Source: Rhodocollybia butyracea
Taxonomy: Eukaryota; Basidiomycota; Agaricomycetes; Agaricales; Omphalotaceae
Direction: 5' to 3'
Length of the DNA: 64,000 bases
Assembly: GCA_015501585.1 (NCBI GenBank)
Contig: JADNRY010000261.1
Location: 1-64,000, forward strand
Shown here: piece by piece, positions 13,318 through 64,000 of the stretch
Numbering within the stretch: the first letter of the stretch is position 1
Layout: every line of letters starts with the position of its first letter
Translations under genes and position numbers: made by a program
The notes under the pieces: generated by a model
Told to the model about the DNA's origin: nothing
The model's input: only the letters and a program-made list of their open reading frames with translations
The model's database searches: none

Positions 13318-13369
13318 GTTCCAGTTTTACGCATATGAAGTAGGCGGGGGTTCGATTCCCTCTCTGGCC
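13318..13369 (+). pseudogene. Truncated GGCCAGA-family tRNA-like unit
   Basis: Only the 3' half remains: GAAGTAGGCGGGGG, box B GGTTCGATTCC and TCTGGCC, followed by T6. The 5' acceptor and box A are replaced by unrelated sequence. Confidence 0.55.
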
Positions 13370-42049: not shown

Positions 42050-42346
42050 AACGGAAATAGAGACAAGGCAAATTAGCGCGCGCAAATAGATCTGTTATCA
42101 CGTCGTGTTTAGGGCAGGTCTGTTGGTGCTTGACTGATGCCATTGTAAGTTTTTTTCATTGGACTCGTATCTTGATAGTACTTACGCTTTTGATTAAAAG
42201 ATTCAAATGCAATAGAGCAGAATGCGCTTATCCGGCAGCATCCACAGCAAAAACTCATCCAAAAGCCTACCATTTTGGCACCAGTGTGAGTTTTCAAGGC
42301 AAGTAAATCTTCATCAGTTATATGCACATGGTTTTATGAAAATGGC
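42050..42346. other. Divergent intergenic region
   Basis: Separates the Cys/His-rich gene from the RecQ-type gene and probably contains the unplaced first exon of the latter. No convincing promoter motif is recognised. Confidence 0.35.
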
Positions 42347-47727: not shown

Positions 47728-48889
47728 TATTAACTGCTGGGCTAAGGCGCATGCGTATGCTCGTTCTGAACTTGGAACAACGCCTTGATTAGATCCTAAA
47801 AAAGTAGCTCACTAGGACAAATGTTCGCCCTTACCCTCTTCAGTTTGTAGAAGCGTACAAGACTGAAGCGTCATACCACTAGACTCCCTCAAAGTGTTTA
47901 ATGATCCGTACTACTCAATAAATGTCGCTTAGCACTAGTACCTTCACTTATATCAATACCACCCCAAACATTGATTGACCTAGGCTGATTGCAAATGGCG
48001 ACAGAGCTGCGACCATGGAACATCAAAGGGAGACGTGAAGCACAAGGGTATTGGAGTGAGAATTGTCTTCTAAAGCTTAAGTGAATTTCCAGTTTAACAA
48101 AGTGAAGATGTTTCCAAGGTAGATATAATAAACATCATTTAGCATGCAGTAGAAGAGATTCTTGAGTAAGAGGCACGTGATTTTATATGACTCAAAAGCA
48201 TGCCATGCCACGGTTTTGGCTCACGTGATAACCACTCCTGCCTAATGTGCGTCTACTTGTTTGCAAGGTGTACTTTAGCCCCAGGATAGCAGGGGTTTGT
48301 GTTTGAATTTGCCTCAAACAGGCTGGAGACTGAATAAATTGATCAGGGTATCCGGGCGTAGCAGAGGGCTGGCTTGGAACAACATCCGAACCAAGTGCAG
48401 GCTCACCCAGCTCAAGGAAGAAAAGGAGTTTGGGAGCAAGGTGTTGGACATAGCCTTTGAATTGTGGGACCCCTCTTCAGTAAATACTGGTCAGACTCTG
48501 GATACATTCAACTGAAGTGTGATACCACTAGACTACAAGGGCATTTCAAATGGCCTTTTACGTTGGTAAGTGGGTAAATAACCTGGGCGTGAATCTATAA
48601 CTTGTAATACGTCAGGTCCCAGTTTGTTCCAGTATTATAGCCTCTGAAGTTGTACAAAAGTGTAGACATTTACTATGACTAGTGTTACACCAGAGCTGCC
48701 TTTCACGCAGACTCGGAGCAATTTTTCTGGAAGAATTATGGGAGAATTTTGGCAGAATTCTGGGAGATTCATCTATTTGGGGTCGCTGAGAACTTGAACT
48801 CATTTTTCCTACCCTGCACTCGTGGTCAGCTGCTGTGCAAGATTTTGAGGCAGCTAGTGGGGACAAGAGAGGATGTGATCAACCCTGTG
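47728..48889. other. Gene-poor stretch
   Basis: Contains a related copy of the 49-bp repeat (GCCATGCCACGGTTTTGGCT near 48205, then CACGTGAT) and an ATTCTGGGAGATTC word near 48756 shared with 56930-56960. No gene supported. Confidence 0.35.
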
Positions 48890-49345: not shown

Positions 49346-49445
49346 ACACTCAAATAGTCAAGTGGTCAAGACACCTTGAATATATATACCATTCATATAC
49401 CAATATTTCAAGGAGGCGGGTGGTTCAATTCCCCCTTTGGGTATA
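49346..49445 (+). tRNA. tRNA-like unit, ACTCAAA family
   Basis: ACACTCAAA faces TTTGGGTAT. Box A TAGTCAAGTGG, box B GGTTCAATTCC. CCTTGAATAT faces ATATTTCAAGG. A T9 run begins near 49464. An ACCT-TTCC-TAGTA leader precedes it. Confidence 0.6.
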
Positions 49446-49782
49446 GTTGAGAGATCCTCCAGTTTTTTTTTCCCACTGTCCCCAGTACTGCGGGACCACG
49501 CTGCAATACCCCGGTCATCTTTCATTCCTCCTTTGAGTGTAGCGGACTGATCATACAGTTATCTTCCAGCATATAGGAATCAAGCAATGACTAGAAATGC
49601 AGGGAACATCCGTGACGTGTTTTAGCTGAGGGATCATATTGAAAGTCTGAGCATGGAATGATGCACCTCAATCAAAGACAGCTCAGTGTGGGCACTGAAT
49701 ATAAGAGTCTTGGTGATTTGTAGTGGAGCAAAAAAAAAAAAAAACAAAAACAAAAACTGCAGAAATACCAGACGCGTCGATT

Positions 49783-49858
49783 ACCCTGTGAGGATCGAAC
49801 CTGCGTGTCCACTGAATCGGGTTTGGACAGATATCAACTAACAGTTGCGCTATCAGGG
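49783..49858 (-). tRNA. tRNA-like unit, CCCTGATAGC family
   Basis: Minus strand: ACCCTG pairs with CAGGGT; box A TAGCGCAACTG; anticodon-position stem TGTCC with GGACA; box B GGTTCGATCCT. The T stem is weak. T5 lies about 35 nt downstream on the minus strand. Confidence 0.45.
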
Positions 49859-50063
49859 TTCAATACTGCTACTGGTACAAAGGTACTTGGCAGCTGCAGG
49901 CTGTGACACACTCGAATAGTCGAGTAGCTAAGATCGTGCAGGGTTCAATTCGAGAGAAAAGTCTCTAGGTGGATCTGCCACCCAACGCATGGCACAGTGT
50001 GACAATGTATAGAAGTTACGTGAGAGCCCGACATCACTTTACCAGGTTCACCACTTCCAGAGT

Positions 50064-50169
50064 GCACTCGCATAGTCCAGTGGTCAAGACACCTTGAAAT
50101 CATCCATATATCTGTTTCAAGTACATTTAGATTCCAGGGAGATGGGAGTTCAATTCTTCCTGTGAGTAT
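50064..50169 (+). tRNA. tRNA-like unit, ACTCRCA family
   Basis: ACTCGCA pairs with TGTGAGT. Box A TAGTCCAGTGG; T stem GGGAG with CTTCC around TTCAATT. A conserved leader (CAGGTTCACCACTTCCAG) precedes and T5 follows near 50190. The change of acceptor and T stem together relative to the ACTCAAA family is compensatory. Confidence 0.6.
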
Positions 50170-50233
50170 TCACCATGAGACTGCGCAATTTTTGTGACCC
50201 CCCTCTGTTAACCTGGTGAACAGATCCTAATAT

Positions 50234-50307
50234 GCACTCAAATAGTCAGGTGGCCAAGACGCTTTGAAATTACAAGTGGGCGGGGGTTCGATTTCTCCTT
50301 TGGGTGT
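50234..50307 (+). tRNA. tRNA-like unit, ACTCAAA family, short arm
   Basis: ACTCAAA faces TTTGGGT; box A TAGTCAGGTGG; box B GGTTCGATTTC. Most of the long arm is deleted (CTTTGAAATTACAAGTGGG). T6 follows near 50325. Confidence 0.5.
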
Positions 50308-50442
50308 AGTGGAGAGATCATGCAGTTTTTTCGCCTTTACTGATGATAGTACTAATGTTGAGGGAGGGTTCTCTGGATTGTGTTGTCTCCCTCAAACAAA
50401 TATGAGAAAAAAATACTAGGTCGAAATACAGGAGGCATGGAT

Positions 50443-50508
50443 TACCCTACAAGGTTCGAACCTGTGAAGTTTGGCCATAGGTCAACTAACAATTGAGCTA
50501 TCAGGGTA
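50443..50508 (-). tRNA. tRNA-like unit, CCCTGATAGC family
   Basis: Minus strand: TACCCT pairs with AGGGTA; box A TAGCTCAATTG; box B GGTTCGAACCT with T stem ACAGG/CTTGT. T7 lies about 30 nt downstream on the minus strand. Confidence 0.5.
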
Positions 50509-50691
50509 TGAATTAAAAGTCCCTTGCCTCTGATGTCACTAAGCATAACATCTTTATATTATTCTGGCCGATTTTACGCGCAGTAGAGCAAAGGACTTGT
50601 GAAAGAAAAGGCGACGCCGGCAGGATGTGCCCGGATGCAACAGACTCTGTGCATGAAACAACACGTTCAACCAGATGGACGAATCCTAGTA

Positions 50692-50782
50692 CACACTCAA
50701 ATAGTCAAGTGGTCAAGACACCTTGAAATCATAACATCTTGAAGGATTAAGGAGGCGGGGGTTCAATTCCACCTTTGGGTGT
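50692..50782 (+). tRNA. tRNA-like unit, ACTCAAA family
   Basis: CACACTCAAA faces TTTGGGTGT; box A TAGTCAAGTGG; box B GGTTCAATTCC. The arm beginning CCTTGAAATCAT is shortened. T5 near 50818. Confidence 0.55.
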
Positions 50783-51140
50783 AACAAGAAAGCAATATGT
50801 GTGAAGCTGATAGTAGTTTTTATTTGAAACCATTAGTGTTGGCGAGCAACCGATTCTACGAGGTCTAGTACAAACTCAAATAGTCACACCTTGCAATTAT
50901 AAACTTGACGCAGGATGGAGGCGAGGGTTTGATTTTACCTTTGGGTGTGCCCGAAAATAGAGTGAACTTTTTTCCCCTCTCTAGAAGACTCTTATCCACA
51001 CAAGGTGGTGGTTCAGTTTGTCCTTTGATGTATAACCCAGTCTCTACAAGGTGGTTGGGATGCCAGCAGGTAACTCGAAGAGTTGGCCAAGTCGTGATGC
51101 GCAGTGACACAGTGGCCAACTTTCAACACATCCAGTGCTT
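50783..51140. other. Spacer with a damaged tRNA-like copy
   Basis: At 50872-50948 AACTCAAATAGTC and GGTTTGATTTTACCTTTGGG remain, but box A is cut by a deletion. Another T-run lies near 50968. Nothing else seen. Confidence 0.4.
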
Positions 51141-51236
51141 ATTCACATGGTCTAGTGGTCAAGACACCTTGAAATCATATAACTTGGGCTCACTGTGAGA
51201 TTTCATGGAGACGGGAGTTCAATCCTTCCTGTGAAT
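51141..51236 (+). tRNA. tRNA-like unit, ACTCRCA family
   Basis: ATTCACA pairs perfectly with TGTGAAT, a third acceptor variant. Box A TGGTCTAGTGG, box B AGTTCAATCCT. CCTTGAAATC faces GATTTCATGG. T7 follows directly near 51238. Confidence 0.6.
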
Positions 51237-51335
51237 GATTTTTTTCTCTGTCCTAGAGTAATGTAACATGGGGGTGTTGTCTACATATGTGGTATGAACG
51301 CAAACACTATTTAACCTGGTAAACTACTTTTAGTA

Positions 51336-51437
51336 TGCACTTGAATAGTCAAGTGGCTAAGACACCTTGGAATCATACATCAAGCTCCAGTGCTAGAGGA
51401 TTCCGGGGAGGCGGGGGTTCGATTCCTCCTTTGAGTA
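51336..51437 (+). tRNA. tRNA-like unit, ACTTGAA variant
   Basis: GCACTTGAA faces TTTGAGTAT. Box A TAGTCAAGTGG, box B GGTTCGATTCC. In the long arm CTTGGAATC faces GATTCCGGG, a covariation with CTTGAAATC/GATTTCAAG of other copies. T7 near 51457. Confidence 0.6.
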
Positions 51438-51537
51438 TCCACGAAGTGTAAACGATGTTTTTTTCGACCCTATAGGGAATCTCAAGTGGTGCTGTTTTAG
51501 GACAATCTGAAGAGTTCTGGTCTGACCACATACAGTA

Positions 51538-52260
51538 CTCACTCGAGTAGTCAAGTGGCCAAGACGCCTTGAAGTTATACTAATATTTCAAGGAGGCGGG
51601 GGACCTTTGAGTGTAATAAGAAAAAAATAAGGTACTCCCTACATGAAACGTATGTACTTCCAGGTCTAGTACAAGCTCAATTAGTCAAGTGGCCAAGACA
51701 CCTTGGAATTATACATCAAGCTCCAGTGCTAGAGGATTATGGGGAGGCCGGGGTGTGCCTGAATCGCCGCGATAATTGGCATGTGTGAGAGTCCACTCTG
51801 GGCGAGACCAGTTTCTGAGGCTCGTCCAGGGATTGCCTGCAGTAAGCCAGGTCATTCTTAGCTTGGAATGATATCTTGATTAAACCCAGCTCTAAATTGT
51901 TGACCTCATACTAGTAGACACTGTTGGCAGGCACGAGCTGATCAGGGAATGACAATCAACTCGTTCAGGCTATGGACTCTCCAGTTTGGTGCCCAACACT
52001 TCTAGTGTGTCCAAGAAGCCATACAAGCAAAGTTGAATTTCATGGAGACGGGAGTCTGTGAGTAAATAAGCTTAATTTTTTCTACTCTCCAACTGGAACA
52101 CGTATAGATTTGCACAAGCCAGCCATCATACTTTGAAAATGGATTTGAACCATAAGCTTAAACCAGTCCATGACTTCACACTTGGATAGTCAAGTGAACA
52201 AGACACCTCAATTGATTTCGAGGACGTGTTGCTGCAAGGGTTACCTGTAGTGGTGTATTG
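51538..52260. repeat. Three damaged tRNA-like copies
   Basis: 51538-51614 has both acceptor halves but lacks box B. 51663-51755 keeps box A (TAGTCAAGTGG) and the arm but loses the 3' end. 52165-52215 keeps only ACACTTGGATAGTCAAGTG and a short arm. The rest is featureless. Confidence 0.5.
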
Positions 52261-52341
52261 AACGGGCTAATCTTTTTCCTGCACTTCTTGATGTATCACA
52301 GATTTTCGCGCGACAGCATTAGCCCCTTCACCACTCCTAGC

Positions 52342-52430
52342 ACAGACTCGAATAGTCAAGTGGGCAAGACGCCTTGCACCCAAGATTTCATCTTTCAAGG
52401 AGGCGGAGGTTCGATTCCTCCTTTAAGTGT
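52342..52430 (+). tRNA. tRNA-like unit, ACTCGAA variant
   Basis: GACTCGAA faces TTTAAGTGT with one mismatch. Box A TAGTCAAGTGG, box B GGTTCGATTCC, GCCTTG facing CAAGGAGGC. No strong T-run is near, so terminator use is doubtful. Confidence 0.5.
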
Positions 52431-52529
52431 AACGGAAATGTAATTGTATACAGTTTTAGTAAGCCAGACAGCCACAGCTATGTGAAAGCACATTGGTTTA
52501 TTGGCCTAAATCTCAACACATCTAGTGCT

Positions 52530-52626
52530 TACCCACATAGTCTAGTGGTCAAGACACCTTGAAATCATATGAATTGGATTGCTATCGGATTTCAGGGAGA
52601 CGGGAGTTCGATTCTTCCTGTGGATA
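52530..52626 (+). tRNA. tRNA-like unit, ACTCRCA family
   Basis: ACCCACA faces TGTGGAT (6 of 7 pairs). Box A TAGTCTAGTGG, box B AGTTCGATTCT. CTTGAAATC faces GATTTCAGG. T7 near 52631. Confidence 0.6.
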
Positions 52627-53668
52627 AATGATTTTTTTCCACTGTGTGCCAGTTAGGCGACCAACACTGAATGACTACACCCTCAATAGTCAGAGGTGTG
52701 AGCGCAAAAAAAGTGCTGTGTCTCAGGCATGTTAGAAACATCATTTAACCTGGCATTAGTACACAATAAAATGGTTGATTGGATAAGACGCCTCGAAGAA
52801 TCGCTTATAATGAGGAAAACAGTTTTTTTCTTTCCGTTACGGATGAGTGGGATTCTTTCCCCAAATGGATGTGCGCAAGATGCTAGTAACTAACCCTAAC
52901 CCCTAAGTTTTAATTCGAAACCCATTTTACCAGGTCTAGTACACGCTCGAAAACTCAATGCCTTGAAATCATATGTTTAACCCCAGATAGTGCTGTGGCC
53001 GTAGCATAAATATTCTGAGTCGTACCACTCCTGTGAAACAGTCAAGTCGTCAAGACGCCTTGAAATTACACATACGAAATAAGATGAGGTAGGGGTTCGA
53101 TTCCTCCTTTGGGTGTACCTGTACTTCACGTAATAACAAAAACAGTTACCGATGAGTGGGATGAGATGTACGCAAGACATTACAGCTTTAAAATTAAAAA
53201 AGAAGGTTTTAGGATCACAATCAAGATAGTCTCATAAAGTATTCCTTGGGCAGGAAATATGGCTCACATGTAATGATGTCATTAGGCTTGGAACTGAAGA
53301 TTGGTTCCAATGTTAAGTCTTAGTGTTGTTAATATTTACGGATTCCAGAAGATGGCTGCAGGAGAGCGGGGATCGCCATCTCTCGATCCATGGGAGTCAA
53401 TAAAAAATTAGAGAATGGGATTCGAGGCCCGCTCACTGGAGCAATAAACCACTGGACTATAAGTGCCTTGCTAGGGTGAATAGTTAGTGCATCTAAAGGT
53501 CAGTAGTTTCGTGCTTAACTCAGAATGATGTCAGATGCGTATAGCAGCCTCTGAAGTTGAGCATAAGTGAGGTAGCACTTTTATGACTCCAAGGATATGG
53601 TGTCAACTACTAGACCATGGTGGCTGCAATTTTAGTAACATAATGGGACTCGTATCAACTAATAAGAA
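52627..53668. repeat. Spacer with two damaged tRNA-like copies
   Basis: 52755-52805 has a degraded 5' half. 53035-53118 keeps the arm, box B GGTTCGATTCC and TTTGGGTGT but lost the 5' acceptor. TGATGTCATTAGGCTTGGAA occurs near 53274. CTAACCCTAACCCC (two telomere-like units) is at about 52892-52905. No gene. Confidence 0.4.
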
Positions 53669-53749
53669 GGCTCAGATAGTCTAGGGGTAAGACAATTCAG
53701 TTGTATTGCCAGCCACGAATAGACGTAGGTTCAATTCCTACTCTGGCCG
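53669..53749 (+). tRNA. tRNA-like unit, GGCCAGA family, compact
   Basis: GGCTCAGATAGTCTAGGGG (box A TAGTCTAGGGG), perfect T arm GTAGG-TTCAATT-CCTAC and CTCTGGCC end. Anticodon-position stem ATTC/GAAT with an 18-nt loop. T7 follows near 53767. The acceptor pairs partially. Confidence 0.5.
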
Positions 53750-53872
53750 TTCCACGTGTGTCCACTTTTTTTCTCTAACCTTCTGCATTTAAACTACTTC
53801 AACTTGCTAGGGTGGTAACGCAGATCGTTAAAGCACAAGTGCACACTTGACCAGGGCTACCACTTTTACAGT

Positions 53873-53967
53873 GCACTCACATAGTCCAGCGAGACGCCTC
53901 GAAATCATTCACATGAAGTTACATCTTTATTTCGAGGAGACGGGAGTTCGATCCTTCCTGTGAGTAT
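53873..53967 (+). tRNA. tRNA-like unit, ACTCRCA family, D-arm deletion
   Basis: ACTCACA pairs perfectly with TGTGAGT. T arm GGGAG-TTCGATC-CTTCC. Arm GCCTCGAAAT faces ATTTCGAGG, compensatory to CCTTGAAAT/ATTTCAAGG. Box A is shortened (TAGTCCAGCG). T6 near 53984. Confidence 0.5.
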
Positions 53968-54851
53968 GTGTGGATAGACGATTTTTTCCATCAGTACTTA
54001 TTCCATATGAGGAGCAGGGATGGCAGCAAGTTGGACAAAGCGATAATAATGCATTCTGGTATGCACTCAAATAGTCGAGTGGCCAAGAAAGCAGGAGTTT
54101 AGGGTTTAGGGTGATTTTTTTGCCTACTCTCTATGTGAAGCTTGTGCAGGTTAGCCATTAATTGGCGAGCTTGTACAAACTCAAATAGTCAAGATCCATC
54201 ATATATCAAGCTTCAGGGCCAGAGGATTCCAGGAAGGCGGGGGGTTTGAATCCTCCTTTGGGTGTGATGGAACAATTCATGTGGACATTTTTAAGTGAGC
54301 CAGCCTTCTTTGAATAGAAACTCGAAGAGTATGCTTCCCACAGGAGCAGGTTAGTCTTCATCGCCGGCTATGCTCGCAGCTATGTGAAAGCACGTGTGTT
54401 TATTGGCCAACTTTTAACGCATCTAGTGCCCTAAGAGACGGGAGTTTTGTGAATTATGGCGTAATGACAGGCACAAAGGATTCTGACTTGAAAAGGGCCC
54501 TGGTTCACACTCCTGGTATGCACTCGCATAGTCTAGTGGTCAAGACACCTTGAAACTGTACTACTCGAGTCCTACAACAGATTCCAAGGTCTTCCTGTGA
54601 GTATTAAAGGATGAGTAATTCATCCAGGAGGAACGTGCAAGCCAGATATAGACAGGAGGTGAGTAACGTCCGTCCAAGACGCCTCGGAAAGGGTTCTCTG
54701 AGTGTCCACACCGAGTCTGTGTTGCATAGCGATTGTGGTGGATGTTAACAGGGCGTTTCAGGGCAGCATTAAACACTGGTAAACTATCAAGACGAGGACA
54801 TGGCAACTAGTTCATCTACTGTAACGAGGCACATCAGTACTGAATTATATT
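53968..54851. repeat. Damaged tRNA-like copies and short telomere-like word
   Basis: 54057-54095 is a 5' fragment immediately followed by GTTTAGGGTTTAGGG. 54175-54267 lacks the D arm. 54518-54605 (ACTCGCATAGTCTAGTGG) lacks box B. No protein gene. Confidence 0.45.
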
Positions 54852-56696
54852 CTACTTGACATTTTTGAGAAAGCGATCAAGTTCCTTCAACCACGCGGTT
54901 ACTTCGGTATTTTCAAGTCCTTCCCAATGGACGCGATCTGGGCCACCACGCGACATAGCTGCCTTCCACCCCATAAAGACGTTACGTGCTCCAACCAGCA
55001 ATACGAGTTCATCTGCAATCTCTGCAGCCTTGTTCGGTAACCCTTGGTTTGCTTTCTCCTCTTCCACTTTTGCCTTTTTCTTCGTCTCTGTTTCGAGTTT
55101 CTTCCACTTGGGCCACCACTCCATCATTTTCCGGTTCATCATCTTTGCGATTTCTAGCCCTTCTAAGCTCCAAGTTGAGACGCCAATATGGACAGACGCG
55201 GTCAAGGAGAGGCAGCAGTGGATGGTGAGGGGTGGAACGTCAAAACAATCGCCTTGCTCAACCAGGTATACCTGCATACCCGTCATGTTTCTCATATACA
55301 CGTCAAGCGAATGCTCAGGATGGTAATTCATCTCATATAAATTCCGACAGACCCATGATATGTTATGTTCAATTGGGGGCCAAACCACCCATACCTTCGA
55401 GCCCCTTGCCTGGTAGATCCGCATTCCATACCCGAACCCATCCCTGTGAGCCGAGGTGATGCTTCCCGGCTGAGTATAGGTGGCCGGTCGTAGATCTGGA
55501 GAGTCAAAGACGATTGTAGAGGACTCCCATCGTATGTTGAGGTCTTTGAGCCCGTCGCGAGCTGCTACTGGCCAACTTTCAACAATCGAATAGTATGGTT
55601 CTTCGGGATCCACCAGACTTTCACGGTCGCTGAAATTGGCGATAAGCTCCGCTGAAATCCTAGTTAGAACACAAAAAAAAAAAAAAACTGGATGAGAAGA
55701 AACTTACACAGCAAAGGAAATGCATTCATTCCTAGTGAGCCAATACTCGCTTTTCTAACGTCAACTGCCAAGTCGGCCCAGATCATTGAAGTATTAAAAA
55801 CTGAGCTCATTTCTGGAGCCGGGGCTTGGGTGAGAAGACCAGATGAATTCGGCATGTCGAATGCGAAGGTTGGTTGGTTTTTCAGACGTTCGAGGAACCG
55901 GTCGACTCGATCGCGGAGGTTAAGGTGTCTGCAAGAGTGTGGGTCCCAGAGTGCTTGAATCTTTTCAGCTGGAGTCATTGTGTCTGGACTATAGTCAGCA
56001 TGGAATGTACTTTCCCTGAAAAAGGTGGACTTGCCACTGTAAACAATTTTGGATGACTCGGGGTTAATCTTTTGTTTTTTCTACCCATAAATTAGATGTT
56101 TCATAGTTGAAAAGAGGTAAAAATGACGCACGTTTATTGGGGTAGAAGGCCCCGCTTCAGGAGTGTCTTGAGTTACGACTTTCTGCTTCTTGGAGTTTAA
56201 TTTTCTCAACCGATCCTGGAAAAAAAACTCAATATCGATACAACTAACAACCACAACATCTTCACCTCGTTTCCTTCTATGTCTTCACTTATGGCATGCT
56301 TGTTCTTGCTGTAGTCTTCCCAGTGTTCTTTGAGTGTATTCCACGTATAGTGGGTCCCTTTTATTGACGATGGATGAATGAACGCTTGATTTAAAGGTTT
56401 CTCATTCCAGTTCAAGCCATCAAAGACCCAATATCGTTCAGATGAGGTGTTCAAATGGAGGTAACCAATCTTAGGATTCGGACTATCGCTTAGGGTTTCA
56501 TACAGAAAGCGCGTGGCATCAGGAGGACCAGGTGAGGTTGAGTAGATCGTCTCAAAATTTTGACTGTTGATTCTTCGACTCTTGGACTTGGTAATCATAG
56601 CATCAACCAAGTCTTAATGCTCATGTTGGCTTGAGCATGGTAGGCATATCGAGATGGAAACTTACTGGTGGAGTTTGGTGTATTGCTGTTTGACAT
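54852..56696 (-). CDS. JmjC-like protein, distinct subfamily, triad intact
   Basis: Reads leftward from ATG 56696 (MSNSNTPNST) through several exons: YWVFDGLNWNEKPLNQAFIH, then DRLRKLNSKKQKVVTQD, KIVYSGKSTFFRESTFHADY, MTPAEKIQALWDPHSC (at 55978), a helical region, and after an intron at about 55705 the core PGSITSAHRDGFGYGMRIYQ (HxD = HRD), ARGSKVWVVWPP and CFDVPPLTIHCCLSL (distal His). It ends with a lysine-rich helix and TAWLKELDRFLKNVK. Metal ligands are all present, so it could be an Fe(II)/2-oxoglutarate oxygenase. It shares the overall plan with the JmjC-like genes at 19.7 and 26.8 kb but is clearly diverged and stands alone among tRNA-like repeats. No internal stops were found in the spliced exons. 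Confidence 0.72.
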
Positions 56697-57079
56697 TGAG
56701 GGGGGAGGGTTTGTTGAGGAATACCTTCTGTGTGGTCGAGAGAGTTTGGGGCGAGTGGTGTTGTCGACAAGTAACGGAAAGAGAAAGTTTGAGCGCTTAT
56801 TGCTGCGCAACATGTTATGTAATATTTGATCTCGTAAAGTTCACTCGATCAGTCCACATTCAAGCGCATCTACGCCTGTTGTGTAGAAAAATACATAGAC
56901 AAATTGTATCTTGGCAGGATTCTGGGATGTTCTGGGAGATTCTGGGAGATTGTGGCAGAATTCTGGCGGAATCCAAGAATAGTGTATTCATCTCTATCCT
57001 AAATACGAAGAACTTGGTATAAACCCTGAAGCTCTTCAAGTAGCTTTCCTCCACGTATCTAATAATGTCTGTATGGCAC
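56697..57079. other. Upstream region with ATTCTGGGAGA reiteration
   Basis: ATTCTGGGAT, TTCTGGGAGATTCTGGGAGA and AGAATTCTGGCGGAATCC follow each other at about 56920-56975, with a related run near 48726-48770. No gene. Confidence 0.45.
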
Positions 57080-57148
57080 GGTGGCATATGTGGTTCACAA
57101 ACCTCTTGGTTCAGAGCAACCCGCAAGGGTTCGATACCCTCAGACAGC
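57080..57148 (+). tRNA. tRNA-like unit, GTCTGTATGG family
   Basis: GTCTG pairs with CAGAC. Box A-like TGGCACGGTGG; T arm AGGG-TTCGATA-CCCT. Close relative at 61697. T6 near 57175. The anticodon arm is unclear. Confidence 0.45.
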
Positions 57149-57393
57149 AGTTTTACCATAATCATCATCCCATGTTTTTTCATGGCTGATTTATTGTTCA
57201 TTGAGTAGTATTTTTGAAAAGCATATCCTTCAGTCAGCAAGCAGCGTGCGCAAACAGATCAATTTCACGTGCATTACATATCACTTTATGTGACTAGAAG
57301 TCGGAATCAGAGTCAGAGTGAGCTCATCTAGCCACAGTGTTGCCAGGCACTTCTGGCCACCGTACCAAGACAACATTCACTCCGCTCCTAGTA
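57149..57393. other. No feature seen
   Basis: Non-coding spacer leading into the next tRNA-like unit. Confidence 0.3.
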
Positions 57394-57499
57394 CACACTC
57401 GAATAGTCAAGTGGTCAAGACACCTTGAGATTATAGATCGTTGATTCGGCACTGTTTGTATTTCAAGGAGGCGGGGGTTCAATTCCTCCTTTGAGTGTG
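57394..57499 (+). tRNA. tRNA-like unit, ACTCGAA variant
   Basis: CACACTCGAA faces TTTGAGTGTG. Box A TAGTCAAGTGG; box B GGTTCAATTCC. CCTTGAGAT faces GTATTTCAAGG. T6 near 57509. Confidence 0.62.
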
Positions 57500-57622
57500 C
57501 TGTAATACATTTTTTCTTGTACTTCTTGATAAGTATATTTCTGCGGACATGGGTTACTGGTAGGCACTGAATTAGTCACCTATCCTACAGTAACAGCATT
57601 CATCAAACTGCACTTGTAGTAC

Positions 57623-57710
57623 GCACTTGAATAGTCAAGTGGTCAAGACGCCTTGAAATAATAGATGAGAAAATCAAGAAAGCATGGAGTTCGATTCCTC
57701 CTTCAAGTAT
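57623..57710 (+). tRNA. tRNA-like unit, ACTTGAA/TTCAAGT
   Basis: ACTTGAA pairs perfectly with TTCAAGT, covarying with ACTCAAA/TTTGAGT elsewhere. Box A TAGTCAAGTGG; box B AGTTCGATTCC. The arm starts CCTTGAAATAATAG; its 3' side (TCAAGAAAGC) is eroded. Confidence 0.58.
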
Positions 57711-57758
57711 ACATCGGGTTAACGCCAGTATACAAATTTGGTAGTCCACTTTGATAGT

Positions 57759-57857
57759 GTACTCACTTAGTCAAGCTGCCAGGATGCCTTGAGATTTTGA
57801 CAAGCAAGCATTGTCCATATTCCAAGGAGACGGGAGTTCGAGTCTTCCTGTGAGTAT
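57759..57857 (+). tRNA. tRNA-like unit, ACTCACT/TGTGAGT
   Basis: TACTCACT faces TGTGAGTAT. Box A TAGTCAAGCTG; T arm GGGAG-TTCGAGT-CTTCC. CCTTGAGAT faces ATATTCCAAGG. T6 near 57873. Confidence 0.55.
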
Positions 57858-58186
57858 CTGAGAATATATAATTTTTTCCATCTTCCAACAAGTGGGATTC
57901 ACACATATTTTTATTCTGGATGGGGAAATGGCGAGAGCAGGGACGGTAGCAAGTTGAATCCAGGCATTGAAATGGGATAGCAATAAAGGGTTAGGAGAAT
58001 GCAATCTGCCAAGACACCTTGAGATTATAGATCGTTGGTTCGGCATTTATATTTCAACGAGGGGGGTCCAGTGTAATACATTTTTTCCGCGCTGCGTGAG
58101 GTGCCATAGATATAGATGGGTTGGCAAGTTACAGAAGAAAGTACTAAATTAGTCGCCTGCACTTGACCTGGTTCACCACTTGTAGT
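57858..58186. repeat. Spacer with eroded tRNA-like copy
   Basis: 58003-58076 keeps CAAGACACCTTGAGATTATAG and TTTCAACGAGG but no box A or B. T6 near 58080. Confidence 0.4.
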
Positions 58187-58289
58187 ACACATTCGAATAG
58201 TCAAGTGGTCAAGACGCCTCGAAATTATAGATACAAAGTGAAATCTCATCTTTCAAGGAGGCGGGGGTTCGATTCCTCCTTTGAGGGTA
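58187..58289 (+). tRNA. tRNA-like unit, ATTCGAA variant
   Basis: ACATTCGAA faces TTTGAGGGT. Box A TAGTCAAGTGG, box B GGTTCGATTCC, arm GCCTCGAAATT facing TTTCAAGGAGGC. Leader CTTGACCTGGTTCACCACTT; T6 near 58313. Confidence 0.6.
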
Positions 58290-58362
58290 ACATCTTAACA
58301 TCAGAAGAGTTAATTTTTTCTCAGTTGCTGGAAAAGGTAGGTGATGTCAACGAATTTCAATA

Positions 58363-58453
58363 CACACTCAAATAGTCAAGTGGACAAGACACCTTGAGTG
58401 CATCTCACATTAACATTTCAAAGACGCGGAGGTTCGATTCCTCCTTTGAATGT
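58363..58453 (+). tRNA. tRNA-like unit, ACTCAAA family
   Basis: CACACTCAAA faces TTTGAATGT. Box A TAGTCAAGTGG; box B GGTTCGATTCC. CCTTGAGTG faces CATTTCAAAG. T6 near 58481. Confidence 0.58.
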
Positions 58454-58533
58454 ATAAGGAATGACTGAATGAGTTACATTTTTTGTCACATATAAGAGCA
58501 TTCATCAAACTGCACTTGACCTGGTTTACCACT

Positions 58534-58631
58534 TGTACGAATAGTCAAGTGGTTAAGACGCCTTGAAATTATAAAACTGCCCCAGGATTTCAGGTTTCAA
58601 GGAGACGGGGGTTCGATCCCTCCTTTCAGTA
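58534..58631 (+). pseudogene. tRNA-like unit lacking 5' acceptor
   Basis: GTACGAATAGTCAAGTGG begins directly after the leader; box A and box B (GGTTCGATCCC) and the arm (CCTTGAAAT, GGTTTCAAGG) are intact. A long T-run (T12 or more) near 58667. Confidence 0.5.
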
Positions 58632-59789
58632 TGTTATTTGCCATCCCAAACATGAGACAATGTGAGTTTTTTTTTTTTTACCTGATGTTGTGATATCATT
58701 CTCGAATTGTTAATCACTCTGGGATTTCTTTTTGCATGGACATAAGACTCGAGCGCACGTCTCAGGCAACTTTAGTGCAGGTATTCATGGCCTGATGGTG
58801 CAATGGTATTTCCCTTGGTTTGTTCTTGTAATCAAGAGGCTTTCTCCTAAGCAGACCCTTGAAATAATGGCCTTGTGAAAATGTAGAGCCACGTTTTTTT
58901 TTCTCTCAAAAATAAATATGCTAGGAACGATTCCTTACCAGGCTGCACTTGTATGGCCTGATACGCCTTTGGTTCCGATCTGAGTTTGAAAGGATTCAGC
59001 ATTGTGTGAATGCCCTAAAAATGAGATGGACAAGTAACAACACTCTAGTCTGTCATAGTGAGGTTGAACAATTGAGCTCGCAAACACATAGTAACTACAT
59101 GCTAGCTTATATACTATACATACTGTATAATATGCTACAGGCGCCTAAGTAATCTCCGGAGTTGCCACATCAGAAGAGCATGTCGAACCCCGCATCTTGC
59201 GAACAGGAGGGTCTCTGGTGACCCATCAACTGGGATCCTGGCAACACTTGAGTAAGAGGCACATGATCCACCTGCTTGGTTAGTTTTACTCTATATTATG
59301 TAGTTGTATCAGGATAGCAGCATTGTGTAGGGATTTTTGTTTTGTTTTGGCTACTGTATAGAAACTCTGTTTTGCTTTGAAACAGGTTGCGGACATAGAT
59401 TGAAGAAGGGAAAGTGAGACTTGAGGATGACGTGTGAACAATGATGTCATTGTAATCGGTTCTGATCTCTGGTTGTAACAGAAAAGTTGTTCCTGGCTTG
59501 GAACGACGGAACCAGAACTCACCTCATCAATAAAAAATAGTAATAGCTCAAGGATAAAAAGGGGTTCAGGGGTGCGGTGAATGTACACCGGACAAACACT
59601 TCACACTACCACTACTAGGCCATAAGGGCATTAATAATTTCCAGCAACACACCCTAAAGGGTATACATAATCAGATGAGCATGGTATGAGCTGAAGAGGT
59701 GCATGTTGGTCAGTGAAACGCGTCGTCACTCAACCCATGCTTTGTCCCAAGACCGCTTGTCTTTTAACCTGGTTCACCACTCCTAGTAT
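58632..59789. other. Gene-poor spacer
   Basis: Contains GCCTGATGGTGCAATGG near 58791 (a box A-like start related to 36688) and CAATGATGTCATTGTAATCG near 59439. A minus-strand open frame at 59286-59588 has no recognisable features. Confidence 0.35.
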
Positions 59790-59881
59790 GCACTCAAATA
59801 GTCAAGTGGCCAAGACACCTTGAAATTGTAAAATCCAACAATCTACCTTTTCAAGGAGGCAGGGGCTCAACCTTTGAGTGT
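59790..59881 (+). pseudogene. tRNA-like unit with damaged box B
   Basis: CACTCAAA pairs with TTTGAGTG. Box A TAGTCAAGTGG; the arm CCTTGAAATTG faces TTTTCAAGG, but box B is shortened to GGCTCAACC. A full leader TTTAACCTGGTTCACCACT precedes. Confidence 0.5.
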
Positions 59882-59993
59882 ACCGTAGAAATTGAATATC
59901 TAGAGAAGACCTGCGGTGCATTTTGTCCTTTGATGTATAGTAATAATCAGTAATCATTTTCAAAGCCAATTATCTGAGACCATGAGCTCTACT

Positions 59994-60084
59994 ACACACT
60001 CAAATAGTCAAGTGGTCAAGACGCCTATACAAGGATAAATCTCATCTTTCAAGGAGGCGGGGGTTTGATTCCTTCTTTGAGGGC
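59994..60084 (+). tRNA. tRNA-like unit, ACTCAAA family
   Basis: CACACTCAAA faces TTTGAGGGC. Box A TAGTCAAGTGG; box B GGTTTGATTCC. The arm is partly eroded on its 5' side. T6 near 60111. Confidence 0.52.
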
Positions 60085-60173
60085 AATACTTTGACATGGA
60101 AACATGTAATTTTTTCCCAGTTGTTGGAACAAGAAAAGTCTGATCACACTTTCCCAAGTCAACGACCTCTAAT

Positions 60174-60281
60174 ACACACCCAAATAGTCGAGTGGCTAAG
60201 ACGCCTTGAGATCATGGATCATTCATCCCAAAACTATATAAGTATTCCAAGGAGGCGGAGGTTCGATTCCTCCTTTGAGTT
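60174..60281 (+). tRNA. tRNA-like unit, ACCCAAA variant
   Basis: CACACCCAAA faces TTTGAGTTT. Box A TAGTCGAGTGG; box B GGTTCGATTCC. CCTTGAGATC with GTATTCCAAGG. T7 near 60301. Confidence 0.58.
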
Positions 60282-61334
60282 TGATGGGAAATGATTGACA
60301 TTTTTTTCCTGTTCTGCTCGATAGTGCTGCAGACATGATTGGCAAGTTAGTCAGTCATCAAACTGCACTTGACCTACTTCACCACTTTTAGTACACACTC
60401 AAATAGTAAACTGCCCAAGACATGACCTATATTTCAAGTTTGATTCCTTACCAAGCCTCAACAATCAGGAGTGACAATAAAAGGATTCTTACATGACATT
60501 GTTTCCCACTCCTGGTATGCGCTTGCATAGTCTTGAAGCACAAAGTTACATGGCAAGGAGGCGGGGATTCGATTTGTCCACTTTCCAAGAGGGACGTGGG
60601 ATAAGAGATCAAAGCAATCAGAAATTTTATGTCATATATATCCATTTGTTTTAACGTCTGGACTAAGTAGCCCGTGGGATAGGCCTACAGTATTGGGCAT
60701 GAGCGCTGCTCCTTGTCAACTCAGGCCAGCATTTAAAGTGTTAGAAACACTGTTTAACCTGGTAAACTACTTTTAGTGTACACTGGAATAGTCAAGTGGT
60801 CAAGACGCCTTGAAATTATAGATGAGAAAATCAAGGATGCGGGGGTTTGTTGAGGGATCATAAGTTTTTTGCCACTCTTATCCGCATGTATAGTGATTTT
60901 TTTCCCTGGTCCGGCGGGGATCTGCCAGCTGGAAACCTTAAAGAGTGCTACGGCGAGCCAGGGCTACAGCTATTGTGATAACACACCAGGCCTTACTTGC
61001 CAATTCTTCCTGTGAGCATTGAAGAATGGATCATTTTTTTTTGCCACTTTCCAAAGAACGCGGGAGCCACCTGGTTGGCAGAAGCAAGTACATCCGCTTG
61101 TTCTAATGTCTGGGCCGAGTATAGTGTGTGCTTGCCTTTTAGTTTTCGCTTAGCTCGAGCGATGCCTGTTTCTATCTCACGGCAGCATACACACTCAAGT
61201 TGAGGCTCGATTTCTCCTTTGAGTATCCACGAAAAGCAGGATAAACTACAGGGAGTTATTCTTCTCGCAATGGAGAGAGACAGTTGCGCACAAAGTACTT
61301 GGATAAGCAATCCAAAAAAAAAGAGAAGCCATTT
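60282..61334. repeat. Cluster of broken tRNA-like copies
   Basis: 60393-60445, 60516-60578 and 60776-60850 keep ACACTCAAATAG, GCTTGCATAGTC or ACACTGGAATAGTCAAGTGG starts but lack one or both boxes. 61005-61020 and 61192-61230 are 3' fragments (TTCTTCCTGTGAGCATT; ATTTCTCCTTTGAGTATC). No protein gene. Confidence 0.45.
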
Positions 61335-61418
61335 GAATTACCCAGAGAGGTTCGAACCTGCATACGTATTAGTCAAAGGGTGGGCCACAACCTAAACCGT
61401 TCAGCTATATCAGGGCCT
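61335..61418 (-). tRNA. tRNA-like unit, CCCTGATATAGC type
   Basis: Minus strand: GGCCCTGATATAGCTGAACG and box B GGTTCGAACCT with GGGTAA end; acceptor pairing is partial. A T9 run lies just downstream on the minus strand (about 61322-61314). Confidence 0.42.
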
Positions 61419-61696
61419 GACAGAAAGGCCAAATAAGACAATGATAACGGGGTTGTGTTCAGTTACACCCAATCGCGTAAGACGATCTGATTGCTCTGTA
61501 TGTTGCGTGAGTTCCCCTCATATGTAGAATCAGACAACACATTATTCTTACACTAGACCTCCGTACGCTGGAACAACAGAGCATATGCGACTAAAATGGT
61601 AGAGCATCTCCCGTTGCACTTCGATCTGCCGGCTGGCATATTTTCCAGACGGCTCTCTACCCACAAGACGCCACATATTCGGAACTTGATGATGGT
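61419..61696. other. No feature seen
   Basis: Non-coding spacer without recognised structure. Confidence 0.3.
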
Positions 61697-61767
61697 CTGT
61701 ATGGCACAGTGGCATAGTGTTATTATTCAACGCAATCTCCAAGAGTTCGATCCCTTAAGCCGGACAA
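61697..61767 (+). tRNA. tRNA-like unit, GTCTGTATGG family
   Basis: GTCTGTATGGCACAGTGGCA matches the start at 57080. Box B AGTTCGATCCC. The 3' acceptor (CCGGAC) pairs only in part. Confidence 0.42.
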
Positions 61768-62367
61768 ACCCTTGGCCCAGAAGTGAAGCGTGAGTGTATG
61801 AGGAAAGACTGTGTGGTCTACATTTTACCCATACTGCTTGGCGTGTCAGAGATATAGTGCTGCGGACATGTGAAATGCTACAGCGACAGCATCCATCAGA
61901 TCAGTCAAAGCCCCACTTGACCTGCTTTACCACTTGTATGTCACGATACACCCTCGTAGGTATAAGCACAGCATCCTCTCACACGTATCATGTATTTGTT
62001 ATTCTTCTTACAAGTCTCACTTGAGTTCTTACATGTTTTACTCGTATTTAACGTAGCTTTTCATTACAAGCTAAAAGAGAGGCCAACAGCACAGGAATTA
62101 AATAACTTAACAAGCATCTACGTACGGGACCACAAAATTTCATCGCGCAGCGTTAACGATAACTTAATATTACTTCGATCGTAGTACAGGGTTAGCAGCG
62201 AAAACTTTCTTACAAGCAACTACAGGACGCAACTTGCATTTGTTTGTTTCATTCATAAGTCAGATCGCTAAAACAAGAACTGTGTCAAACTCCAAGCACA
62301 TCCAATAATATCACTACTAAAGTACAAAATTCGTCCGCAAATCTTTATAACTGACACAGGGATCTCG
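61768..62367. other. Gene-poor spacer
   Basis: A leader-like CTTGACCTGCTTTACCACTT at about 61917 has no tRNA-like body after it. 62033-62066 carries GTTTTACTCGTATTTAACGT and GTAGCTTTTCATTACA, repeated at 63729-63760. Confidence 0.4.
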
Positions 62368-62820
62368 TTATCTCAACAACACATTCAACCTATCGTTTTC
62401 CGCTTCCAAGATTCCATTCCTCCCTTCAAGTCGAACAACTTCTGATTGTAAAAACTCGCACTTTTCTACCTTCTCTTCCAACTGTTTGCGTAGAAGATCC
62501 ACCAACGCTTTTTGTTGTATCTGTGACTGCTTTTTTTTCTCCAACTCCAACATCGCTTCATCAAACAGATTGGCCAATTCCTTATAAACATCCATCAGAC
62601 ATTCCCTCTCGATCCGATGTTCAACAAGTTCAAGAAGACGTTTCCGTCGCTCTTCAACTTGGACCTCCAGTACTTCAATTTCTGCATCTCTGGATATCAC
62701 ACGTTCGACTTCATCATCATCCGTTAACACATCCACCAGCGTTACAGAAGCAGACTGTGGCGAATCAACGATTGTGGAGACCATGCCCTCGGAAGCATCA
62801 CTTTCCACGTTGGAGAGCAT
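62368..62820 (-). CDS. Coiled-coil protein (150 residues)
   Basis: Single open frame from ATG 62820 (MLSNVESDASEGMVSTIV) with an acidic head (VLTDDDEVERV) and long heptad-like stretches (EIEVLEVQVEERRKRLLELV, ALVDLLRKQLEEKVEK, EVVRLEGRNGILEAENDRLN). A dimeric coiled coil is likely; no catalytic motif. It has the same acidic-head-plus-coil plan as 37679-38023 but no close identity, so common origin is unproven. Isolated between short direct repeats at 62.03 and 63.73 kb. Confidence 0.55.
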   Translation of the reverse strand: MLSNVESDASEGMVSTIVDSPQSASVTLVDVLTDDDEVERVISRDAEIEVLEVQVEERRKRLLELVEHRIERECLMDVYKELANLFDEAMLELEKKKQSQIQQKALVDLLRKQLEEKVEKCEFLQSEVVRLEGRNGILEAENDRLNVLLR

Positions 62821-63235
62821 AATTGAATCTACGAAACCTCAGCATCTCAAACTAAGTCTTCAAACGCAATCCCATACCTTTCTACTTCAACACCACAAAT
62901 GATAATTTTGAACGATGAACTTTCCAAACAATGTTCTATAATCAAAAAGAAAATGATAACCCAAGAAATTTTAACTCCCAAGCTCACTTACTCAGAAGTG
63001 GTACGTGTTGAAGACGCTAGACGCCCACTGCTTAGACGCCGATTGCGTAAACTATGACCGAACCAACGACCACAACACTACTACTACTACACTATTAACT
63101 ACAACAACTACACCGGTTCTAGCAATTGAGCCTAACTTTGACTTAAAATTCACCAACCTCGTCAACTTGCATTACCGCTAGCGAAACGAAAACCAGGTCA
63201 CGAACACCCCGAATATATAGTACCTAAACTAAATT
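62821..63235. other. Upstream region of coiled-coil gene
   Basis: AT-rich non-coding sequence with ACTACTACTACTACACTATT near 63079. No motif is recognised. Confidence 0.3.
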
Positions 63236-63601
63236 ATGATCTTCTCCACACGTGTATCGTCACAGGTAATCGATTATACTCCTGCTTATCCAACCTGCAC
63301 ATCAACAACCAAGAAAGACCGCAGCCTAACAGCTGCAGAACCAGAAGACTCCAAACAGGTACCTCGGTTTCAGCAGACGACTATGGTCGGAACCGCAGTA
63401 ACTGATATCGAATCCAGACAACACAACGAAACAATTAAGGACATGCGTTGGCTGCTGGGTTATTTCAGATCAGTGCTCGGAAGACTAGTTTGTAAATCGT
63501 TAGATAGCACAACTTTCTACCTTAATGATATCTCTTTCACGTTTACACAACGGATTGCAAAAAACTCCAACACCGCATTCAATTCATTCACCTTTACATA
63601 G
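63236..63601 (+). CDS. Doubtful open reading frame, 121 codons
   Basis: Open from ATG 63236 with no recognised domain, a Thr/Ser-rich composition and no supporting neighbour or paralogue. It could be part of a spliced gene or chance. Recorded because it is the longest frame in this interval. Confidence 0.2.
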   Translation: MIFSTRVSSQVIDYTPAYPTCTSTTKKDRSLTAAEPEDSKQVPRFQQTTMVGTAVTDIESRQHNETIKDMRWLLGYFRSVLGRLVCKSLDSTTFYLNDISFTFTQRIAKNSNTAFNSFTFT

Positions 63602-63968
63602 CAACACTGCTCCTACATTTTCAATAACCGTTCATTCACTGTACTTGTCTACTTCGTACAACGATGTATCACCACTTCACCGTAACTCAGAGTCGGGGAT
63701 TGCCGTGCTTTGCACGGCGCTAACGATGTTTTACTCGTAATTAACGTAGCTTTTCATTACATGCTTCAACTAGAGTTTCATGTGTATTTCATATTTACTT
63801 ACAGTATTTAAACACTTGGAGATACCCAGATTCCCCAGTTAAATCAACTCTTACACACCTGCTTATTCTCTTCCCTCTCTTACCCTTGCTCTTCTCTTCT
63901 CTTATCCACTCTTATTCCCTCTTCTCCTCCTAAGAGGAAGTTCTCGCCGTCTCTCCGGCTTCACCTTC
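63602..63968. other. Non-coding, pyrimidine-rich end
   Basis: Contains the inverted repeat GCCGTGCTTTGCACGGC at about 63700-63716, the second copy of the GTAGCTTTTCATTACA repeat (63745-63760) and CTCTTCTCTTCTCTTATCC near 63890. Confidence 0.45.
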
Positions 63969-63971
63969 AGT

Positions 63972-64000
63972 ACACACTCAAATAGTCAAGTGGTCAAGAC
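63972..64000 (+). tRNA. tRNA-like unit cut by the window end
   Basis: ACACTCAAATAGTCAAGTGG (box A TAGTCAAGTGG) and TCAAGAC at the last base. Same family as the copy at 49346. The 3' part is outside the window. Confidence 0.5.

What the first reader, a model, noticed from the sequence alone, without database searches (positions are those of the whole stretch)
49346..64000. Large family of tRNA-like Pol III units with an elongated anticodon arm
More than 30 copies or fragments share a 7-bp closing stem, a consensus box A (TAGTCAAGTGG), a box B (GGTTCGATTCC), a short AGGC-type variable region and an 8-11 bp arm (CCTTGAAAT facing ATTTCAAGG) in place of a seven-base anticodon loop. Most intact copies have T5 or longer on the sense side within about 40 nt, and many carry a common 5' leader (ACCTGGTTCACCACTT). 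Seen: repeats, boxes, T-runs. Known: A/B boxes and T-runs direct RNA polymerase III. Inferred: a transcribed structural RNA family or tRNA-derived SINE with no decodable anticodon.
Basis: partly seen in the sequence, partly recalled or inferred. Interest (0 to 1): 0.9.

Follow-up and report, generated by a model that had tools for sequence, protein, structure and literature searches.

The report
Tandem array of non-decoding tRNA-like genes
A fungus-like genome carries local, mostly one-direction arrays of dozens of tRNA-shaped genes that keep the switches for RNA polymerase III and the tRNA fold but lack a normal anticodon, so they look like a locally multiplied small-RNA gene family and not like jumping DNA or ordinary tRNA genes.

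Summary
The repeats are real. A covariance model built from 17 window copies finds 32 matches at E<=1 on the + strand of 49,346-64,000 and none on the - strand there. A second array, absent from the model's training set, lies on contig C80. Of 82 genome matches to the 5' half, 70 lie on four contigs, one strand per contig. No target-site duplications show, so a SINE or TRIM origin is not supported; tandem duplication is. Selection on transcription and fold is indicated: intact copies have T5+ within 45 nt downstream in 28 of 31, against 0 of 31 for A5+ and 0 of 31 for T5+ inside the unit; 16 of 24 base pairs show double changes; the core is 77% identical between arrays, flanks 61-62%, loop 48%. 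They are not ordinary tRNAs: nucleotide 33 is never T (0 of 51), while genuine tRNA-Gly(GCC) genes of the same genome give one anticodon (7 of 7). The long loop probably descends from a hypervariable tRNA intron. Many copies are decaying. Best reading: a birth-and-death array of tRNA-derived, non-decoding Pol III genes. Expression and function are unproven.

The parts
49348..49444 (+). main-family unit, 89.3 bits; T9 18 nt downstream
50066..50169 (+). main-family unit (TGTGAGT subfamily), 93.7 bits, with leader motif starting at -25
50236..50307 (+). main-family unit with very short loop, 66.7 bits
50695..50782 (+). main-family unit, 84.7 bits
50874..50948 (+). degenerate unit, 32.3 bits
51141..51238 (+). 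main-family unit (TGTGAAT subfamily), 90.7 bits; closest partner C80:144624
51339..51438 (+). main-family unit, 91.5 bits
51541..51614 (+). unit with truncated T arm, 63.2 bits, no T5 in the next 60 nt
51675..51782 (+). degenerate unit, 37.9 bits
52346..52430 (+). main-family unit, 81.6 bits; T4 only downstream
52531..52627 (+). main-family unit, 98.2 bits
53032..53116 (+). degenerate unit, 43.9 bits
53670..53750 (+). related tRNA-like unit with a different arm, T7 downstream
53875..53967 (+). main-family unit, 88.6 bits; compensated arm CCTCG/CGAGG
54179..54265 (+). degenerate unit, 36.8 bits
54522..54604 (+). degenerate unit, 50.6 bits
57397..57498 (+). main-family unit, best score 99.7 bits; 90% identical to C80:145932-146030
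57625..57710 (+). main-family unit, 69 bits, no T5 in the next 60 nt
57761..57857 (+). main-family unit, 80.9 bits
58191..58288 (+). main-family unit, 94 bits, leader motif starting at -25
58366..58453 (+). main-family unit, 82.8 bits; the only ARAGORN call in the window (Ser-tga at 58365-58453)
58535..58632 (+). main-family unit, 85.9 bits
59792..59881 (+). unit with truncated T arm, 64.5 bits, no T5 in the next 60 nt
59998..60084 (+). unit with partly deleted arm, 71.7 bits
60178..60282 (+). main-family unit, 89.6 bits
60782..60878 (+). degenerate unit, 42.7 bits
63976..64000 (+). 5' end of a further unit, cut by the window edge

Best explanation
A local gene family of tRNA-derived RNAs that no longer decode. 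Shown: a few arrays, each on one strand, of units with box A, box B and, in most intact copies, a downstream T-run; amplification by tandem and segmental duplication; core and fold better kept than flanks and loop. Inferred: the founder was an intron-bearing tRNA gene whose intron became the variable loop and whose anticodon loop drifted (A/G at nt 33); intact members are still transcribed by RNA polymerase III into about 100-150 nt tRNA-like RNAs and selected for transcription and folding, while others decay (birth and death). I think the RNA, not only the DNA, matters to the cell, because double changes preserve stems outside the promoter boxes; what it does (processing-enzyme or tRNA-binding-protein ligand, small-RNA source) is open.
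For: Terminators: T5+ within 45 nt in 28 of 31 units with >=80 bits, 8 of 13 with 60-80, 8 of 16 below 60; A5+ in 0, 1 and 3; the 28 T-runs start 0-34 nt after the unit (28/31 vs 8/16, Fisher p = 0.004). The T-run is not part of the model. With copies chosen by the 5' half alone, T5+ follows in 36 of 49. Fold: 16 of 24 pairs with double changes; 73 such cells against 19.9 shuffled; 93.4% of cells paired against 35-56% for slid controls (49 distinct rows). With the 5'-half choice, broken acceptor pairs are 62 against 82.6 shuffled, 0 of 2000 shuffles as low. Constraint: core 0.77, 5' flank 0.62, 3' flank 0.61, loop 0.48; core above 3' flank in 104 of 116 comparisons and above 5' flank in 77 of 92 (166 non-independent comparisons). 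Mode: HSPs all direct (410, 100, 182); 725-bp 99.7% direct repeat in C80. Non-decoding: nt 33 is T in 0 of 51; ARAGORN with introns of 60 with 18 different anticodons against 7 of 7 Gly(gcc) in L093.
Against: No expression data. Thermodynamic stability is barely above shuffles (mean z -0.81; 6 of 31 below -2). With the 5'-half choice only 61 of 123 deviant acceptor pairs stay paired, against about 40% in the shuffles. 13 of 63 five-prime halves lack a recognisable 3' half in the range searched. In the inter-array unit pair of highest identity (51141 and C80:144624) core, loop and flanks are about equally conserved (0.95, 0.92, 0.92). Shuffles ignore relatedness, and several double changes are subfamily traits inherited together. 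Arrays are not pure: two weak + strand matches lie beside the C80 array, and L028 (C563 beyond 64 kb) has three - strand matches of a related family.
Confidence: 0.5

Rival explanations
1. A decaying tRNA pseudogene array: an intron-bearing tRNA gene was tandemly amplified, lost its role and now decays; the signs of selection date from functional ancestors.
For: tRNA-Gly(GCC) genes here cluster with hypervariable introns, 7 of 7 on one strand in L093 and 11 of 12 listed matches on C517, showing the route. Many units are broken (16 of 60 below 60 bits; 13 of 63 without a recognisable 3' half). Folding z is weak.
Against: T-runs kept in 28 of 31 intact units at varying distances while flanks are about 61% identical; double changes in 16 of 24 pairs; the D-arm pattern with <=1 mismatch occurs 29 times, all on C80, C563, C500 and C470, so no canonical parent with that D arm was found.
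Confidence: 0.32
2. Mobile elements: a tRNA-derived SINE, or LTRs of a Helenus-type TRIM, that inserted repeatedly.
For: tRNA-like heads with Pol III boxes are typical of both. Helenus is published for rusts and some Agaricomycetes, and tandem arrays of one zebrafish family are mentioned (PMC10886601, passages read). An element of that plan exists in this genome: 296-bp LTRs TG...CA around a tRNA-like sequence; one full copy and two solo LTRs each have 5-bp target-site duplications. 12 of 82 matches to the main-family 5' half lie outside the four array contigs, on ten contigs.
Against: Main-family copies lie mostly in few clusters, one direction each; no excess of flanking repeats; the best inter-array matches often begin 8-9 nt upstream of the unit and end at or within a few nt of its end; of 6 close direct-repeat pairs in the arrays only one holds whole units, and it is hardly longer than the units; box A starts TAGTC where most Helenus have TRGCY.
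Confidence: 0.05
3. A DNA-level role: the arrays act as TFIIIC/Pol III boundary or chromatin elements, and the RNA is a by-product.
For: Dense A/B boxes; a related family lies within the first 5 kb of seven contigs. tRNA clusters as chromatin barriers are known in yeasts (recalled).
Against: Does not explain compensatory changes in acceptor and anticodon arms outside the boxes or the retention of terminators.
Confidence: 0.08
4. Unusual but translating tRNAs: a 7-bp anticodon stem (CCUUGAA/UUCAAGG) followed by A-U-YAU-A, an Ile/Met-like anticodon shifted by two pairs, with an intron.
For: The octamer AAAUYAUA at nt 32-39 is conserved past the paired part (nt 37 A 43 of 49, nt 38 T 45 of 49, nt 36 C/T 47 of 50) and conservation drops to nothing at nt 40.
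Against: A 7-bp anticodon stem would misplace the anticodon in the ribosome (general knowledge); the first extension pair is kept in only 35 of 47; C and T at nt 36 do not track nt 73 (Fisher p = 1 on 36 of 51 copies); units are far more divergent than the tRNA-Gly genes.
Confidence: 0.05

Closest known systems
Helenus TRIMs (non-autonomous LTR retrotransposons with tRNA-like LTRs; PMC10886601, abstract and passages read)
   Same: tRNA-like sequence with boxes A and B, isotype and anticodon often in disagreement, known from fungi; an element of this plan is in the same genome.
   Different: Main family has no LTR pair, no excess of flanking repeats, mostly one orientation per contig, few arrays, TAGTC instead of TRGCY in box A.
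tRNA-derived SINEs of fungi (for example AfuSINE2, PMC5063351, seen in a search listing with the start of its abstract)
   Same: tRNA-related head, many diverged copies.
   Different: AfuSINE2 has target-site duplications; here none found, little dispersal, one strand per contig.
Intron-containing nuclear tRNA genes (tRNA-Gly(GCC) cluster on C517 of the same genome)
   Same: Cluster mostly on one strand, variable insert in the anticodon loop, T-run downstream.
   Different: Control: near-identical exons and one anticodon (7 of 7). Main family: core about 77% identical between arrays, no U33, continuous arm extension.
Rfam tRNA, RF00005
   Same: Many units pass the gathering score of 29 (main family 29.3-49.4 bits).
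   Different: No valid anticodon loop. The score itself does not discriminate: only 1 of the 7 genuine tRNA-Gly genes of L093 passes it.

Membership tests
canonical cytosolic tRNA | cloverleaf with acceptor, D and T arms | tested here: met
canonical cytosolic tRNA | U33 and a consistent anticodon after intron removal | tested here: not met
   0 of 51 with T33; 18 different calls in 27 of 60; control 7 of 7 gcc
canonical cytosolic tRNA | aminoacylation and ribosome binding | not testable with these tools
   no expression data
Helenus TRIM | two LTRs with PBS and PPT between | tested here: not met
   6 close direct-repeat pairs (>=85%, >=70 bp, <2.5 kb apart); only one holds whole units and it is hardly longer than the units. 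PBS and PPT were not searched for. Contrast: L094
Helenus TRIM | 5-bp target-site duplication in fungi | tested here: inconclusive
   unit ends are not sharply defined; no excess of flanking repeats of >=8 nt; a 5-bp repeat alone was not tested for the main family
tRNA-derived SINE | dispersal by retroposition, random orientation | tested here: not met
   70 of 82 matches on four contigs, one strand each
tRNA-derived SINE | target-site duplications | tested here: not met
   2 of 60 with a shared repeat of >=8 nt, chance about 7%; shorter repeats not excluded
tRNA-derived SINE | A-rich or simple-repeat tail | tested here: inconclusive
   A5+ within 60 nt 3' in 4 of 60; other simple tails not scored
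Pol III gene with internal promoter | A box, B box, T-run terminator | tested here: met
Pol III gene with internal promoter | actual transcription | not testable with these tools
   no expression data
tRNA pseudogene array | no excess constraint on unit over flanks | tested here: not met
   for the bulk of comparisons; the pair of highest identity, 51141/C80:144624, shows almost no difference

The most novel reading that the evidence does not exclude
A new class of working, non-decoding tRNA-like RNAs: a constant tRNA-shaped scaffold with a conserved AAAUYAUA element at the base of an enlarged arm (possibly a YAU anticodon shifted by two pairs, or a protein site), most genes showing their own apical loop, amplified in arrays in a fungus-like genome.
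Probability: 0.15. Interest if true: 0.75.

Novelty: new variant of a known kind. Interest (0 to 1): 0.48.

Why it matters
tRNA-like repeats are usually filed as SINEs, TRIMs or pseudogenes. Here a family multiplies by tandem duplication, loses decoding and yet appears to keep promoter, terminator and fold, with a built-in control (intron-bearing tRNA-Gly genes) in the same genome. That makes the question whether tRNA genes can turn into non-decoding RNA genes directly testable, and warns that tRNA counts in such genomes mix at least three kinds of locus.

Tried and rejected
Tried: literature searches for fungal tRNA-like arrays; no title in the listings describes such arrays, and the library holds open-licence papers only. 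The relevant find was Helenus (PMC10886601: outline, abstract and passages read). Passages of PMC9858662 were also read. Protein searches to name the organism: the helicase ORF gave a 60% match from an unnamed source as its best hit, the largest ORF inside the array one unnamed 68% match; a viral-contig scan gave nothing. A T-arm pattern search was uninformative. Loop T-run depletion alone is weak (2 of 42 with T4+ against 5.2 shuffled, P about 0.07) and is not used. Leader as a general feature: rejected (15 of 60). Rejected: miRNA matches near 11.9-13.0 kb (below gathering score). The 4704 first-look tRNA candidates were not used as a count, since only 63 were scored. Rfam score as a sign of degeneration: rejected, since 6 of 7 genuine tRNA-Gly genes in L093 also fail it.

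Rows dropped: the 60-copy table (25 on C563, 35 on C80) leaves out 7 weaker + strand window hits in the finding's interval (63976, 52180, 52765, 57993, 54065, 49910 and the related-family unit 53670), the lowest-scoring C80 hits (two of them on the opposite strand), main-family hits in L028 beyond 64 kb, and the C500/C470 near-duplicates. The A3 count includes 4 units of the related 9-13 kb family. nt 32-39 were read in the 51 of 60 copies whose 5' arm could be placed, the 3' side in 41 of 60. The loop list found loop borders in 42 copies, some loops visibly clipped by the pattern.
Full report
What is there. The window is the first 64,000 bases of contig C563 (87,261 bases) of an unnamed 95.6-Mb, 1381-contig genome. 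Coding content is fungus-like by inference (helicase ORF with DEAD and Helicase_C domains, an OrsD match below cut-off), but no species could be named. From 49.3 kb on, tRNA-like units of 72-108 bases follow each other on the + strand. A covariance model (R1, 97 positions, 24 pairs) built from 17 of them finds 32 matches at E<=1 on the + strand between 49,346 and 64,000 and none on the - strand there. Rfam's tRNA model passes 9 units in this stretch and 14 with the laxer filters (53670, of a related family, included in both). That score is no measure of being a real tRNA: of the 7 tRNA-Gly genes of L093 only one passes.

Where else. The 5'-half pattern with up to 3 mismatches has 82 matches in the genome and 1 in the reversed control. 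Of the 82, 32 lie on C80 (all minus; all but one within 132-149 kb), 24 on C563 (all plus, 49-69 kb), 12 on C500 (all minus, 93-109 kb) and 2 on C470 (plus); the other 12 lie on ten contigs. Units of C500 and C470 score the same as units of C563 and look like near-copies. The D-arm pattern with <=1 mismatch occurs 29 times, all on these four contigs. BLAST between the C563 and C80 arrays gives 410 matches, all in the same relative orientation; among the best ones many start 8-9 bases upstream of the unit and stop at or within a few bases of its end, others include the leader. Self-matches of the two arrays are all direct (100 and 182), and C80 holds a 725-bp direct repeat at 99.7% identity. 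This points to tandem and segmental duplication, not dispersal. No excess of flanking repeats is seen (2 of 60 with a shared repeat of >=8 bases, chance about 7%). Not everything near the arrays is on one strand: the model also gives two weak + strand matches beside the C80 array and three - strand matches of a related family in L028.

Pol III signals. In 60 non-redundant copies (25 on C563, 35 on C80), T5+ occurs within 40 nt downstream in 44, A5+ in 4; T5+ in the 40 nt upstream in 5; T5+ inside the unit in 2; random 40-nt stretches of the arrays carry T5+ in 10-12%. By score: 28 of 31 units with >=80 bits, 8 of 13 with 60-80, 8 of 16 below 60 have T5+ within 45 nt (28/31 against 8/16, p = 0.004). 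The 28 start 0-34 nt after the unit, so the terminator is kept without a fixed place. The T-run is outside the model, so this is not circular; among 49 copies chosen by the 5' half alone 36 have it.

Fold. On 49 distinct rows (4 of the 50 sequences are from the related 9-13 kb family), 93.4% of cells pair, 16 of 24 pairs show double changes, 73 cells against 19.9 in shuffles; slid controls reach 35-56% paired and at most 18 such cells. Caveats: the alignment is fitted to the structure, and subfamily traits count many times. With copies chosen by the 5' half alone (63 copies, 50 with a 3' half, 49 after removing duplicates), broken acceptor pairs are 62 against 82.6 in shuffles (0 of 2000 as low), but only 61 of 123 deviant cells remain paired. 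Minimum free energies are barely lower than shuffles (mean z -0.81, 6 of 31 below -2). In the aligned matches between arrays the core is 0.77 identical, flanks 0.62 and 0.61, loop 0.48 (166 comparisons, not independent; some 'flanks' contain neighbouring units). The pair of highest identity (51141 and C80:144624) shows almost no difference between unit and flanks (0.95, 0.92).

Anticodon. With the 5-bp stem CCTTG/CAAGG as nt 27-31/39-43, nt 33 is A or G in all 51 copies that could be scored, never T. The stretch AAAUYAUA (nt 32-39) is nevertheless conserved and then stops: 1.53 bits at nt 38, 0.59 at 39, 0.01 at 40, with a weaker A at 41 (0.51). On the 3' side T at -2 and -3 is conserved (36 and 34 of 39), -1 is T or C (28 and 10 of 41). 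So the arm is a 5-bp stem, a partly open 32-38 pair, then about three pairs. This resembles anticodon-intron pairing in pre-tRNAs but without the usual bulge (general knowledge, not modelled here).

Controls from the same genome. C517 carries a cluster of tRNA-Gly(GCC) genes: 11 of the 12 listed pattern matches are on the minus strand (capped list), and in L093 7 of 7 are called Gly(gcc), with near-identical exons, unrelated intron sequences of different length at the anticodon loop, and T5+ downstream. This shows where a hypervariable loop can come from and what constraint looks like when a tRNA still decodes. A second contrast is C494: 296-bp LTRs with TG...CA ends containing a tRNA-like sequence called Ser(aga), copies in both orientations; one full copy and two solo LTRs have 5-bp target-site duplications, 3 of 3 examined, matching the plan of fungal Helenus TRIMs as described in PMC10886601 (passages read). 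The main family shares neither pattern: of 6 close direct-repeat pairs in its arrays one holds whole units, and that repeat is hardly longer than the units.

Interpretation. The simplest account is an intron-bearing tRNA gene that was amplified by tandem duplication, lost its decoding loop, and persists as a birth-and-death array in which intact members keep promoter, terminator and fold. Whether that retention is present-day function or a fading inheritance is the open point; I give 0.5 to the first and 0.32 to the second. Transcription itself was not observed.

Noticed in passing
9512-9626 (-), 10857-10973 (+), 12098-12198 (-), 12630-12730 (-), 13286-13371 (+): A related tRNA-like family with other acceptor and arm sequences (GGCCAGA; ACTTGGTAGA facing TCTATCAAGT), T-runs seen downstream; 40 matches (40 of 60 candidates were scored), 22 of them at 98-100% identity; seven of the contigs carry it within their first 5 kb.
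   Followed up: partly
49780-49860 (-), 50420-50515 (-), 61340-61420 (-): A third tRNA-like family on the opposite strand inside the array (ACCCTGATAGC...GGTTCGAACC, seen directly), with T-runs downstream of at least two of them on their own strand; the 50420-50515 query has one other match, in the C80 array.
   Followed up: partly
6400-14000: Many scattered copies of a palindrome-like motif of the type GCACGTCGTGGACGTGC around the related tRNA-like units.
   Followed up: no
L093 (C517:248500-256500): Seven tRNA-Gly(GCC) genes on one strand with near-identical exons and unrelated, length-variable introns.
   Followed up: partly
L094 (C494:702500-710500): Helenus-type TRIM: 296-bp LTRs with a tRNA-like sequence (ARAGORN Ser-aga); one full copy and two solo LTRs, each with a 5-bp target-site duplication.
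   Followed up: partly
C563:66872-66963 (-) and 68195-68291 (-) in L028; window 47793-47893 (-), 48451-48542 (-): A fourth tRNA-like family (GCCCTTATAGTCTAGTGG..., arm CTTCAGTC facing GACTGAGG) with a U at nt 33 but differing triplets (read by eye).
   Followed up: no
main-family units, about nt 19-32: The D loop and anticodon stem hold a conserved inverted repeat (TCAAG..CTTGA) that folds as a competing hairpin in some predicted structures.
   Followed up: no
42340-47012 (+): An ORF with a sub-threshold OrsD match and a DEAD/Helicase_C ORF just upstream of the array; best homologue of the helicase 60% from an unnamed source.
   Followed up: partly
L001-L008: About 84-nt tRNA-like genes with the body GGCTACCTGGCGCAATGG... 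called Ser(cga) or Leu(caa), two of them within 100 bases of the starts of contigs C1305 and C692.
   Followed up: no
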